From an uncultured Oscillospiraceae bacterium (GTDB taxonomy: Bacteria > Bacillota > Clostridia > Oscillospirales > Oscillospiraceae), in contig CAMVRT010000002.1 in NCBI GenBank assembly GCA_947169975.1, positions 142,734 through 206,733 on the forward strand: DNA of 64,000 nt. Reading direction: 5' to 3'. The notes beneath the pieces are model-generated. The model was not told the DNA's origin. It saw nothing but the letters and a program-made list of their open reading frames with translations, and made no database searches. Positions within the stretch are counted from its first letter, which is position 1. The number at the start of each line of letters is the position of its first letter. The position numbers and the translations under genes were made by a program. Below, piece after piece: positions 42,333-62,540 of the stretch.

Positions 42333-42792
42333 ATGCCGTGATGCGATGTTGCTGGGGGCTCTGCCGAATTTCGGCCATCAGCTTTTCAAGCTCCTTTTCC
42401 GTGGGGAGCGTAAGCATCCCTGCGGCGGTGAAATAGATGTCCACCTTCACATGACAGTGACCGTCGTACTTGTCGTTGTTGTGGACCTCGATCCGGCGGA
42501 TCAGCGTGTTCACGATGGTAGGCGTCAATTCCCGCACCTCGGTGAACTCCCGCAGGCCCTTCAGCAGCATACGGAGATCAACCTGCGCCTTGTCCGCTTC
42601 CCGCAGTTCCTGTTCGCAGAGGGCAATGGTTTGCACCAGTTCCTCCGTTTCCTTGAAGCCGGGGCGCTCAAAGGTGGTGCCGCTGACGCCGTCGTCATAG
42701 AAGAATTATGGGTGGAGATGCCCGTTTCGGCGGGCGTAGTCATACAGGATCGTGCGCTGATTCTGGATCGAATTCGACTCCTTGTCTTCCGG
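42331..42792 (-). pseudogene. Degraded large serine recombinase (internally deleted, DUF4368-type C-terminus retained)
   Basis: Minus-strand reading EDKESNSIQNQRTILYDYARRNGHLHP*FFYDDGVSGTTFERPGFKE joined directly to TEELVQTIALCEQELREADKAQVDLRMLLKGLREFTEVRELTPTIVNTLIRRIEVHNNDKYDGHCHVKVDIYF; in-frame stop and missing central region. Confidence 0.85.
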
Positions 42793-43918
42793 ATTGCTTT
42801 TGATGAACCGTTTGTTGTTCCATCTTCCGAAACCGATCGGGCGTTACGCCGAACATCTGCTTGAAGCTGCGGATGAATTGCCTCGTATCACGATAGCCGA
42901 TCTCTTCGCAGATGTGATCGAGCTTCCAGGCCTTCGTTTTCAGCAATTCTGCGGCTTTTCTCAGCTTAAAATCTTTGACAGTCTCTGAGAAAGACCGTCC
43001 GGCCTGCTCCTGAAACATGCGGCTCAAATAGGATTCGTTGTAATGGAATTCGGCAGCCAGATCATGGAGCGTAACCGTACGGTAGTGATTGTACATGTAG
43101 TTGACCATGTCGAGTATCCGCTGGTCCCGTAAAGCGATACTATAGAGCGGCTGCATTGTGTCCATATATCGTTGAAGAATATAGGTAATGAGATTTGCTG
43201 CCGTCGATTCCATGAGCTCCTTTTGATAGGGCATTGCAAGACTTTGCTGCTCGTACAGAAAGAGCAGCATACTTTCAGCGGCAGGGTCCTTCCCACATTG
43301 AAAACTGATCGGATATACCATGGAGGGAAGATGCGGAATACTCATCTTTATGAAGTGACTGAGCCGAATCTTCATGGTAAGGCACAGTGAGTCACCGACA
43401 GCAATGAGCTGGTGTCTGGTCGGAACCGGGATGAGGATAAAGCTCCCTTCCTGCTGGATCACCTCGTTCTCCCCGACGCGATGTATGCAGCTGCCCCGGA
43501 GCACATAGGCACATTCGATAAACTCGTGTGAGTGGGCAGGTATTTCAATATAACGGAGCAGTTTTTCTACGGCAACATTCATGTCAGACGGCATGAAGTC
43601 CTCTTCCGTCAGGCCGGTATTTCCGTATCTCTCATGAAAGGAGGCTACGATCTGTCCCTGCTCCCGAAGAGACGACGGATCATTCATGGTTTCCAGAGTA
43701 TGCCGGTCGGTTCCGCGCATCATCAGATATAAGTACTGACCGTGGCGAAGCATGATCCCCGTTCGGCGGACGGAATCGAGTCCTGCCTTCTCATACGGAT
43801 CCAACCTGGACAACTCCCGGACCAGATGATGATAGTTCGCCAAAGTATCCCTCCGTTCATGGCTCGCCGTCGTTCCTGTTAACAAATCAATTATATCTTC
43901 CGGAAAAGTAAAATTCAA
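42740..43918 (-). CDS. AraC family transcriptional regulator with cupin-type sensor (TTG start)
   Basis: AHSHEFIECAYVLRGSCIHRVGENEVIQQEGSFILIP; HDLAAEFHYNESYLSRMFQEQAGRSFSETVKDFKLRKAAELLKTKAWKLDHICEEIGYRDTRQFIRSFKQMFGVTPDRFRK. Confidence 0.92.
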   Translation of the reverse strand: MNFTFPEDIIDLLTGTTASHERRDTLANYHHLVRELSRLDPYEKAGLDSVRRTGIMLRHGQYLYLMMRGTDRHTLETMNDPSSLREQGQIVASFHERYGNTGLTEEDFMPSDMNVAVEKLLRYIEIPAHSHEFIECAYVLRGSCIHRVGENEVIQQEGSFILIPVPTRHQLIAVGDSLCLTMKIRLSHFIKMSIPHLPSMVYPISFQCGKDPAAESMLLFLYEQQSLAMPYQKELMESTAANLITYILQRYMDTMQPLYSIALRDQRILDMVNYMYNHYRTVTLHDLAAEFHYNESYLSRMFQEQAGRSFSETVKDFKLRKAAELLKTKAWKLDHICEEIGYRDTRQFIRSFKQMFGVTPDRFRKMEQQTVHQKQSGRQGVEFDPESAHDPV

Positions 43919-43943
43919 CCCATCTCACATGTAATATGTGGGT
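43918..43943. promoter_or_regulatory. Imperfect inverted repeat in the AraC/catabolic operon divergent intergenic region
   Basis: ACCCAtctCACATgtaatATGTGGGT. Confidence 0.4.
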
Positions 43944-43999
43944 ATTTTTTATTCTTTTCAAAAACTATATTATAAATATAGGAAAGCACAGAAAGGACC

Positions 44000-60426: not shown

Positions 60427-60439
60427 AGGAGATGGGCAA

Positions 60440-61558
60440 ATGGAAAAGAAAAAACACAGAAAGGCGAAAAAGGTCCTGCTCATTTTCGCCTGCGTCATCG
60501 TCGTTCTCGCTGTCGGTGCGTTTGTGCTGCTGAAAATGACCTTTCTCAAAAGCTTCCCGAAGCTGAAGGGCGAGCCGGAAATCGGGAAATGGTATGAGGT
60601 GGCGGTAGAGGGTACCCAATCCTCGGACGGCAGCGAGTGGCACGGAATCTTTAAAAAGGGCACTGAAAATAAGGTCGTCGTTTATTTCTTCGGCGGTGGC
60701 GTGAGCATCACGCCGGAAACCTCAGAGAGCGGAACAAAATTTTACGCAACAACCACGCAGGCACAGGACTTTGTAGCGGAGGGTGGAATCGGGAGTAACG
60801 CAGAAAACAACCCCTTCAAGGACTGGAGCTTTATTGTGATTCCCTACGCCACCGGTGACTTCCACGCAGGGACCGGTGTATACAAAGGAAACGGAAAAAC
60901 CGTTTATCACACCGGCTACAGCAATTACGCCGCATTCGTCGAGCAAGTCAAACCCTATGTAGGAGAGCCGGATACTCTGCTCATAACCGGCTTCTCCGCT
61001 GGCGGCTTTGCAACCTCGCTTCTGGCCGACGATGTGATTGACCGTTTTCCCTCAGTTGAGAATGTCACGGTCTGCGTAGACAGCTCGTTGCTGCTCTATG
61101 ACGGATGGCACGAGACAGCGGTAAATCTCTGGCAATCGCCGACGGAAATTTCCGATCGGCTTACAACGGACAATCTTGTGCTGGACAGTCTGACAGCTCT
61201 GTATGCAAAGCGAGGCGACAGTGTCAAGATTCTTTTTGACTGTTCCTACCGGGACGATACGCTGATGCAGTATCAGTCCTACATCAACACAGGGAAGATG
61301 GACAAAACCAAGGCGCTTGGCGACCAATTTCAGGCGGATCTTACAAAGATGGTTGCAGGGCTGCAGACGCAGATCCCAGGGATCGGCATCTATATCTGGA
61401 GCGCCGGAGAAGACGCAGAAACGCATAACACACAGCATACGATCATTTCCGGCAATGTTTTTGACAAACTGGAGGACGGCGTCAGCGTTGCGGAGTGGAT
61501 CTATGCTGCTGTAAACGGTGATGTGCAGACCCACGGCCTTGCGCTGCTGGGACAATAA
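60440..61558 (+). CDS. Membrane-anchored pectinacetylesterase-like hydrolase, paralog of 49672-50796
   Basis: N-terminal TM; DWSFIVIPYATGDFHAGTGVYKGNGKTVYHTGYSNY, LLITGFSAGGFATSLLADDV. Confidence 0.7.
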   Translation: MEKKKHRKAKKVLLIFACVIVVLAVGAFVLLKMTFLKSFPKLKGEPEIGKWYEVAVEGTQSSDGSEWHGIFKKGTENKVVVYFFGGGVSITPETSESGTKFYATTTQAQDFVAEGGIGSNAENNPFKDWSFIVIPYATGDFHAGTGVYKGNGKTVYHTGYSNYAAFVEQVKPYVGEPDTLLITGFSAGGFATSLLADDVIDRFPSVENVTVCVDSSLLLYDGWHETAVNLWQSPTEISDRLTTDNLVLDSLTALYAKRGDSVKILFDCSYRDDTLMQYQSYINTGKMDKTKALGDQFQADLTKMVAGLQTQIPGIGIYIWSAGEDAETHNTQHTIISGNVFDKLEDGVSVAEWIYAAVNGDVQTHGLALLGQ

Positions 61559-61577
61559 GATGTGACGGAGGATAGAA

Positions 61578-62540
61578 ATGAAGAAAGTGATGAAAATCGT
61601 ATTGATCCTGTTAGCGGTACTTCTCGCACTGGGTGTCGCCGCATTCTTTTATATCAAGTCCATGCTGCCCAGCGGTGACGGCAACAACGACATAGTAGAG
61701 GGCTATTACAAAAACTTCAAATCGGATGCTCCGCTGGAGATGAAGTATTCTCAGCTTGGCTCTTATGAGACAGCCTACACAGAGTTTGCTTCTGATCATG
61801 AGTCAATCGGCAAAATCCGGGTTTGGTACCCCAAAGACTTGGAAACGGATGACAAGTCATGGCCGATGATCACGGTGGTCAATGCCAGTGGCACACCCGC
61901 CGCCTCATTCGAACCGTTTTTCCCGCGCTTAGCCTCCTGGGGCTTTATCGTGGTCGGCAACGAGGACGGGCAGACCGGAAATGGCGAGACGGCTTCCCTT
62001 ACCTTGGACTTCATGCTGACTGTTCCTGCCGACAGTGTGCTTTCCGGCAAAATCGACTATGAGAACATGGGTATTATCGGCTATTCCCAGGGCGGCGCGG
62101 GAGCGATCTGCGCGCTAACAAATTATGAAAACGGCAAGTACTATAAGACCATCTTCACCGGAAGCGCGGCCTATCCCACGCTGGCCAAGAATATGGGCTG
62201 GGAATATGATACCTCCGAGGTTACAGTGCCTTATTTCATGACTGCCGGTACCGGGAAATCAGACGACTCCGGCACCGACCCCGAGAAGGGCTTCGGCGGC
62301 GTCTCGCCCCTGTCCGCTCTTATTGATAATTACAACAAAGTAACTGACAGCGTCATGAAGGTCCGTGGCAGAGCCGTCGGTGCGGAGCACGAGCAGATGC
62401 TGATGCGTTCAGATGGCTACATGACCGCCTGGATGCTTTACCAGCTCACAGGCGATGAAGAGGCCGGGACAGTATTTGTCGGAGAAGATGCCGAGATCCT
62501 CCACAACACCAACTGGCAGGACGTGGAGAAGAATCGCTGA
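61578..62540 (+). CDS. Membrane-anchored alpha/beta hydrolase (chlorophyllase/PETase-like fold)
   Basis: N-terminal TM; GFIVVGNEDGQTGNG, MGIIGYSQGGAGAICAL, VGAEHEQM. Confidence 0.8.
   Translation: MKKVMKIVLILLAVLLALGVAAFFYIKSMLPSGDGNNDIVEGYYKNFKSDAPLEMKYSQLGSYETAYTEFASDHESIGKIRVWYPKDLETDDKSWPMITVVNASGTPAASFEPFFPRLASWGFIVVGNEDGQTGNGETASLTLDFMLTVPADSVLSGKIDYENMGIIGYSQGGAGAICALTNYENGKYYKTIFTGSAAYPTLAKNMGWEYDTSEVTVPYFMTAGTGKSDDSGTDPEKGFGGVSPLSALIDNYNKVTDSVMKVRGRAVGAEHEQMLMRSDGYMTAWMLYQLTGDEEAGTVFVGEDAEILHNTNWQDVEKNR

What the first reader, a model, noticed from the sequence alone, without database searches (positions are those of the whole stretch)
42740..62540. AraC-controlled esterase-rich glycoside/glycan catabolic locus
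Seen: a divergent AraC regulator, then collinear genes for an esterase, a GPH-type transporter, GH2, four more alpha/beta-hydrolase or PAE-like enzymes, GH3, GH78-like, a small anchored protein, GH94-like, and two membrane-anchored hydrolases. From 44985 to 57961 most junctions overlap or are 1-2 nt apart (ATGA at 46487, 50793, 51683 and 57494; TGATG at 55161), indicating translational coupling. The GHs lack obvious signal peptides. Established: GH78 removes alpha-L-rhamnose, GH2/GH3 remove beta-linked sugars, GH94 enzymes phosphorolyse beta-glucosides. Inference: a small, multiply acylated rhamnose-containing glycoside (saponin, acylated flavonoid glycoside, acetylated rhamno-oligosaccharide) is trimmed outside, imported intact and dismantled inside. 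Seven ester-hydrolase-type genes in one locus is unusually many.
Basis: partly seen in the sequence, partly recalled or inferred. Interest (0 to 1): 0.82.

Follow-up and report, generated by a model that had tools for sequence, protein, structure and literature searches.

The report
Mobile rumen operon dismantling acylated rhamnosides
Uncultured gut bacteria, largely from ruminants, share a horizontally spreading gene block that appears to import a small, heavily acylated, rhamnose-containing plant or microbial glycoside, strip its ester groups with up to seven esterases and take the sugar apart inside the cell, using a sugar phosphorylase of a type not yet characterised.

Summary
All named genes exist at about the stated coordinates and form one tight unit: nine of the fourteen gaps between collinear genes are 2 nt or less. 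The unit runs past the reported end through HAD and GNAT genes to a strong intrinsic terminator at 63949-63984. All four BD-FAE and both PAE matches of the genome lie here, with Ser-Asp-His motifs conserved in nearly all orthologs. The gene set is not local: 25 database loci, mostly ruminant-gut Clostridia, carry it at 70-95% protein identity, although housekeeping MutS and MiaB are only 43-62% identical beyond the genus. It also survives in two rearranged orders, and its GC3 is foreign. So it is a horizontally moving functional cassette. L-rhamnose is supported as a constituent: rhaB/rhaD lie beside variant loci, and RhaD is present in 19 of 23 carriers versus 23 of 97 non-carriers (one tree, so counts are not independent). 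New here: its GH94 belongs to a monophyletic clade (SH-aLRT 100) in which an active-site His kept in characterised GH94 enzymes is Gln. Members neighbour GH78 rhamnosidases (32 of 39); His-type relatives never do (0 of 34). The exact substrate, and what each esterase removes, is unknown.

The parts
42740..43918 (-). AraC-family regulator (cupin + HTH_18), divergent. The listed TTG start is probably upstream of the real one (most orthologs align only from about residue 14-21).
   Evidence: Pfam PF12833/PF07883; orthologs 68-92% in syntenic loci
43908..43999 (+). Presumed regulator site and promoter of the operon: element GTAAAATTCAACC(T/C)ATC...GTAA(A/T)AT...GG(C/T)ATTTTTT followed by TATAAT-like sequence and AGAAAGGA before EstA
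   Evidence: similar element seen by eye in orthologous AraC-EstA intergenic regions; binding not tested
44000..44971 (+). EstA, alpha/beta hydrolase (BD-FAE/HSL type), cytosolic
   Evidence: PF20434/PF07859; GxSAG and HGGG motifs in at least 15 of 16 orthologs
44985..46487 (+). GPH/MFS_2 glycoside:cation symporter; two alleles about 48% identical occupy this slot in different genomes
   Evidence: PF13347, TIGR00792 below cut-off; alleles
46487..48784 (+). GH2 beta-glycosidase, beta-galactosidase-like; optional member of the locus
   Evidence: PF02836/PF02837/PF16355; GalA-like; absent in L016, L017, L018 and L023, 28-residue remnant in L020
48786..49694 (+). EstB, HSL-type esterase, intact triad motifs
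   Evidence: PF07859 E=7e-44; motifs 23/23
49672..50796 (+). PAE1, cytosolic pectin-acetylesterase/Notum-like hydrolase
   Evidence: PF03283; S/D/H columns invariant across PAE1, PAE2 and distant homologs
50793..51686 (+). EstC, optional HSL-type esterase similar to EstB
   Evidence: PF07859; present only in window, L008 and L026 among the close loci
51683..52717 (+). EstD, arylesterase/BD-FAE-like hydrolase with about 100-residue C-terminal extension
   Evidence: NF052620 below cut-off; best solved relative MGS-M1 4q3k; triad motifs in at least 25 of 26
52720..55161 (+). GH3 beta-glucosidase/arabinopyranosidase-like, permuted domain order
   Evidence: PF01915-PF14310-PF00933; closest solved 2x40 beta-glucosidase
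55161..57497 (+). GH78 alpha-L-rhamnosidase, cytosolic
   Evidence: PF17389 E=2e-86, PF08531, PF05592, PF17390; closest solved 3w5m
57494..57961 (+). Small protein: N-terminal TM helix plus beta-rich outer domain; optional
   Evidence: AF2 pLDDT 81; no significant PDB fold match
58006..60426 (+). GH94 inverting phosphorylase-like protein, S632/Q640 clade
   Evidence: PF17167 and PF06165; clade tree; residues
60440..61558 (+). PAE2, TM-anchored pectin-acetylesterase/Notum-like hydrolase
   Evidence: PF03283; AF2 model matches Notum, E=6e-11
61578..62540 (+). TM-anchored PETase/cutinase-like hydrolase
   Evidence: PF12740; solved PETase/lipase relatives
62602..63324 (+). HAD hydrolase, travels with the locus
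   Evidence: PF00702; also in L061, L070, L071, L072
63318..63938 (+). GNAT acetyltransferase, travels with the locus
   Evidence: PF13508; also in L061, L070, L072 and beside GH94 in L091
63949..63984 (+). Intrinsic terminator, end of the operon
   Evidence: 16-pair hairpin followed by a T-rich tail

Best explanation
A horizontally acquired, AraC-controlled catabolic operon for a small, multiply acylated, L-rhamnose-containing glycoside or oligosaccharide. Two membrane-anchored hydrolases (PAE2, PETase-like) remove accessible acyl groups outside. A GPH symporter imports the partly deacylated compound. In the cytosol EstA, EstB, EstD, PAE1 (and EstC) remove the remaining esters. GH78 releases L-rhamnose; GH3, and GH2 where present, release beta-linked hexose; GH94 phosphorolyses a beta-glycosidic bond to give a sugar 1-phosphate. 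Rhamnose goes to a RhaB/isomerase/RhaD pathway encoded elsewhere (contig C23). Shown: gene set, conservation, horizontal spread, families, conserved catalytic motifs, and genomic association with rhamnose catabolism. Inferred: order of steps, import form, nature of the acyl groups, GH94 linkage.
For: Set conserved at 70-95% identity in 25 loci and retained although reordered in G374 and in G870/G872. Horizontal spread: locus medians 83-92% versus MutS 48-60% and MiaB 43-62% beyond the genus; flanking genes on the same contigs mostly 35-50% identical to their best match in the window genome; GC3 0.58-0.77 versus 0.87-0.89 for MutS/MutL/MiaB. Rhamnose: rhaB/isomerase/rhaD abut variant loci L025 and L091, rhaB in L075; lactaldehyde reductase beside L016; own genome has GH3-AraC-GPH-GH78-RhaB-isomerase-RhaD on C23; RhaD in 19/23 carriers versus 23/97 non-carriers, p=2.5e-7. 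Esterases. Topology.
Against: No expression or enzyme data. GH2 is missing in some loci and EstC/sm in most, so they are not essential. GH94 lacks a His conserved in characterised members, so even phosphorolysis is not certain. The carrier versus non-carrier counts come from one tree and incomplete MAGs and are not independent. Esterases of these folds are promiscuous, so the acyl groups could be acetyl, aroyl or others.
Confidence: 0.7

Rival explanations
1. The substrate is a plant secondary glycoside (acylated saponin, flavonoid glycoside or phenylethanoid glycoside) met in forage; the host takes the sugars and releases the aglycone.
For: No endo-acting or secreted GH in the locus; small-molecule GPH-type symporter; BD-FAE family includes feruloyl/acetyl esterases (PMC8165983); many loci come from ruminant-gut MAGs.
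Against: No aglycone-specific gene recognised; GH94 phosphorylases normally act on free oligosaccharides. No direct evidence.
Confidence: 0.4
2. The substrate is an oligosaccharide released by other microbes from an acylated rhamnose-containing polysaccharide (bacterial exopolysaccharide, or a pectin/RG-I side chain), as in the gut xanthan locus.
For: R.UCG13 xanthan locus combines GH94 and two carbohydrate esterases (PMC10881899); PAE family name suggests pectin; GH28-like gene upstream of L029; apparent ABC transporters instead of GPH in some relatives (inspection of L088, L100, L091).
Against: No GH88/GH105 in the 97%-complete genome and none recognised in the locus, which argues against lyase-generated RG-I, gellan or xanthan fragments; no endo-enzyme.
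Confidence: 0.35
3. Detoxification: the esterases mainly inactivate an acylated plant toxin or antibiotic, the sugar genes being secondary.
For: Seven esterases, GNAT and HAD in the unit; horizontal mobility.
Against: Rhamnosidase, GH3, GH94 and a GPH-family importer are retained in most loci long enough to show them; no exporter or target-protection gene.
Confidence: 0.1
4. Assembly or binning artefact: one organism's contig scattered among MAGs.
For: All sources are MAGs or metagenomes; the window lies at a contig end.
Against: Independent assemblies from different studies; genes flanking the locus on the same contigs are mostly only 35-50% identical to their best match in the window genome while the locus is about 90%.
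Confidence: 0.04

Closest known systems
Xanthan utilisation locus of Ruminococcaceae R.UCG13 (Ostrowski et al. 2022, described in PMC10881899)
   Same: Uncultured gut Clostridia; one locus combining esterases, exo-glycosidases and a GH94 for breakdown of an acylated sugar
   Different: Has PL8, GH5, GH88 and GH38 with ABC transporters; here no lyase or endo-enzyme, instead GH78/GH3/GH2, GPH and seven esterases
GH94 cellobiose phosphorylase (3qde, 2cqs) and solabiose phosphorylase PBOR_28850 (PMC8741936)
   Same: Same domains as cellobiose phosphorylase; catalytic DWND, RGxGFRD and TGTAAW motifs kept
   Different: KEN to SEN and FCH to FCQ relative to cellobiose phosphorylases; separate clade tied to GH78; substrate unknown. 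Kinship to PBOR_28850 not tested
L-rhamnose-acceptor phosphorylases of C. phytofermentans (GH65 Glc-alpha-1,3-Rha; GH112 Gal-beta-1,4-Rha; PMC8950772)
   Same: Show that phosphorylases with L-rhamnose as acceptor exist
   Different: Different families; a GH94 equivalent was not found in the papers searched
CE13 pectin acetylesterase / Notum
   Same: PAE2 model matches Notum fold; S, D and H columns invariant
   Different: About 14% identity; one copy cytosolic, one TM-anchored; substrate unknown
BD-FAE bifunctional feruloyl/acetyl esterase (PMC8165983)
   Same: EstA-EstD match the BD-FAE Pfam model above cut-off
   Different: Founding enzyme comes from PULs in beaver-dropping and moose-rumen metagenomes, closest homologs in xylan loci; here in a rhamnoside operon

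Membership tests
GH78 alpha-L-rhamnosidase | Four-domain architecture with 6-hairpin catalytic domain and conserved acidic motifs | tested here: met
   All four Pfam domains above cut-off; DCPTRE, WTGDA and EWNEP in 24/24 orthologs
GH94 phosphorylase | Supersandwich + catalytic domain, catalytic Asp (DWND) | tested here: met
   PF06165 and PF17167; DWND in 21/21
GH94 phosphorylase | Conserved subsite -1 / phosphate-site His | tested here: not met
   Gln at 640 in all clade members covering the position; aligned to the His of cellobiose phosphorylase; a conserved subsite -1 His is described in PMC8741936. A residue change, not a loss of the family fold
Cellobiose phosphorylase (equivalog) | K-E-N ... 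F-C-H substrate-site motif and close identity to characterised CBPs | tested here: not met
   S-E-N ... F-C-Q; separate clade; no NCBIfam match
PAE / CE13-Notum hydrolase | PF03283 above cut-off, Notum-type fold, Ser-Asp-His | tested here: met
Pectin acetylesterase (activity) | Deacetylates homogalacturonan | not testable with these tools
   No enzyme assay
GPH symporter | TIGR00792 above curated cut-off | tested here: not met
   143.9 versus cut-off 231 bits; PF13347 (MFS_2) well above its cut-off, so it is called GPH-type only
GH3 | GH3 N and C domains, nucleophile Asp and acid/base Glu motifs | tested here: met
   TDW 24/24 and GEGADR 22/24
Gram-positive polysaccharide utilisation locus | Regulator + transporter + complementary CAZymes co-conserved | tested here: met
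Gram-positive polysaccharide utilisation locus | Secreted endo-acting depolymerase for a polysaccharide | tested here: not met
   none in window locus; hence described as a glycoside/oligosaccharide operon, not a polysaccharide locus

The most novel reading that the evidence does not exclude
The Q640 GH94 clade is a new phosphorylase specificity, for example a beta-D-glycosyl-L-rhamnose or acyl-oligosaccharide phosphorylase with a rebuilt phosphate/donor site, and the locus is the first recognised pathway for a heavily acylated rhamnoside in rumen Clostridia.
Probability: 0.35. Interest if true: 0.72.

Novelty: new variant of a known kind. Interest (0 to 1): 0.55.

Why it matters
If right, it points to a nutrient (acylated rhamnosides) that gut bacteria compete for strongly enough to trade a ready-made 15-gene operon between genera, offers a testable set of co-adapted esterases, and flags an uncharacterised GH94 clade whose altered active site should reveal a new phosphorylase specificity. 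It could bear on how ruminant microbes process saponins and acylated flavonoids.

Tried and rejected
(1) Apparent hypervariability of GH78 (46-70% identity) was my frame error; with the right start it is 72-90%. (2) Cellobiose phosphorylase assignment: dropped, active-site motifs differ and clade is separate. (3) Solabiose/saponin reading from PBOR_28850: interesting because solabiose occurs in solanine, but that enzyme lies in a mannan/exopolysaccharide cluster and I could not test its kinship to this clade; kept only as a possibility. (4) RG-I, gellan or xanthan fragments made by lyases: weakened by absence of GH88/105. (5) Tandem duplication to explain the permuted order: G870 and G872 each carry one copy of the blocks, split only at contig ends. 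(6) Small anchored protein: no fold match. (7) Distant PAE homologs (L053, L055): other contexts, no help. (8) Literature searches found no description of this locus.
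Full report
What is there. The window lies in a 2.16 Mb, 97%-complete uncultured Clostridia genome and ends at its contig's end. From 42740 to 63984 it holds a divergent AraC regulator and fifteen collinear genes: EstA, GPH symporter, GH2, EstB, PAE1, EstC, EstD, GH3, GH78, a small TM protein, GH94, PAE2, a PETase-like hydrolase, HAD and GNAT. 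Gaps are mostly overlaps or 1-2 nt and the series ends at a 16-pair terminator hairpin.

Is it more than chance? All four PF20434 matches of the genome and both PAE-type matches lie here. Catalytic motifs of the seven hydrolases are conserved in nearly all orthologs, and Ser, Asp and His are invariant between PAE1, PAE2 and distant homologs. The PAE2 model (pLDDT 78.7) matches Notum (E about 1e-10, TM about 0.6).

Conservation of the set. A search with PAE1 in 85,666 species genomes found 25 loci, many labelled rumen, goat, sheep or deer gut. Where contigs are long enough, EstB, PAE1 and EstD and, in nearly all, GH3 and GH78, usually also EstA, GPH, GH94, PAE2 and PETase-like, lie in the same order. 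Optional members: GH2 (absent in L016, L017, L018, L023; a 28-residue stump in L020), EstC (only L008 and L026), sm. Two GPH alleles about 48% identical are interchanged. Two other arrangements keep the set: G374 has GH94-GPH-EstB-EstD-EstA'-GH2-PAE1-GH3-GH78-PAE2-PETase at 63-84% identity (EstA' only 34%), and G870/G872 have GH78-(sm)-GH94-PAE2-(PETase)-AraC-EstA-GPH-GH2-EstB-PAE1-EstD-GH3, single copies; L061 and L072 agree with the latter order. Retention of the set through reordering is the best evidence that it works as a unit.

Mobility. Median locus identities are 80-93% across genes and 83-92% for most, yet beyond the genus MutS is 48-60% and MiaB 43-62% identical. Genes next to the locus on the same contigs are mostly 35-50% identical to their best match in the window genome, so mis-binning is an unlikely cause. 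GC3 of the locus is 0.58-0.77 against 0.87-0.89 for three housekeeping genes. L017 carries two genes reading like large serine recombinases beside AraC (inspection of translations). In a family-wide sample 6 of 401 genomes, in 5 genera, have the GH94 (one of them, G052, only a 42% relative), so it is an accessory cassette.

Rhamnose. GH78 is a clear family member. The host has a second locus, GH3-AraC-GPH-GH78-RhaB-isomerase-RhaD, on C23. In L025 the end of RhaB, the isomerase and RhaD stand directly upstream of GPH-AraC-EstA; in L091 a complete RhaB-isomerase-RhaD set lies shortly downstream of a clade GH94, and in L075 RhaB follows one. L016 has lactaldehyde reductase. RhaD (E<1e-30) occurs in 19/23 carriers and 23/97 non-carrier relatives; within the genus 4/4 versus 6/28. 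These counts are phylogenetically correlated.

GH94. Relatives from metagenomes split cleanly. Those at 63% identity or more carry S632 and Q640 wherever the position is covered; Q-type loci neighbour GH78 in 32 of 39 cases (20/24 when the locus is at least 9 kb). Those at 55% or less nearly all have His and never GH78 (0/34) or these esterases. One distant Gln case (L128, 46%) lies outside the clade and lacks GH78. The tree puts 38 Q-type proteins in one clade with SH-aLRT 100 on a long stem, so the association has one origin and the Fisher p (3e-14) overstates independence. Q640 aligns with the His of the FCH motif of cellobiose phosphorylases; a conserved subsite -1 His is described for GH94 in PMC8741936. 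Spacing to the TGTAAW Thr (67 versus 65 residues) fits that His.

Mechanism proposed. Acyl groups are removed outside (PAE2, PETase-like), the compound enters by GPH, remaining esters are cut by EstA-D and PAE1, then GH78, GH3, GH2 and GH94 dismantle the sugar; rhamnose enters RhaB/isomerase/RhaD. Steps of family chemistry are inference; no assay exists. Absence of GH88/105 and of endo-enzymes favours a small glycoside or a short oligosaccharide without lyase-made ends.

Verdict. A real, mobile and so far undescribed (in the papers searched) rhamnoside/ester catabolic operon; a new variant of a known kind, with an uncharacterised GH94 clade as its most novel part.

Noticed in passing
L058:10010-11428 (C23), L025:397-1815, L091:6220-7671: A 472-aa sugar isomerase between RhaB and RhaD matches only arabinose/sulfoquinovose-isomerase-like models weakly; it may be a non-orthologous L-rhamnose isomerase, 89-93% identical across genomes.
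   Followed up: partly
L021, L024, L061, L072 versus window: The operon occurs in a circularly permuted order (break between GH3 and GH78), suggesting a circular intermediate or block transposition.
   Followed up: partly
L017:458-3963: Two serine-recombinase-like genes (by reading of the translations) directly beside the AraC gene of a variant locus.
   Followed up: no
L053, L055: Distant PAE-like genes (33-35% identity) sit after a small zinc-ribbon-like protein and a larger conserved protein of unchecked family; a different, conserved context for bacterial PAE-like hydrolases.
   Followed up: no
L088, L100, L091: Diverged loci of the same GH94 clade appear to use an ABC transporter instead of GPH; relatives carry two GH78 genes (L087, L089, L100).
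   Followed up: no
window 37370-42000: DUF3592, HAAS, DUF4097, DUF3885 and HTH_3 genes lie between a tRNA-Val (36509-36584) and the operon, in lower-GC DNA.
   Followed up: no
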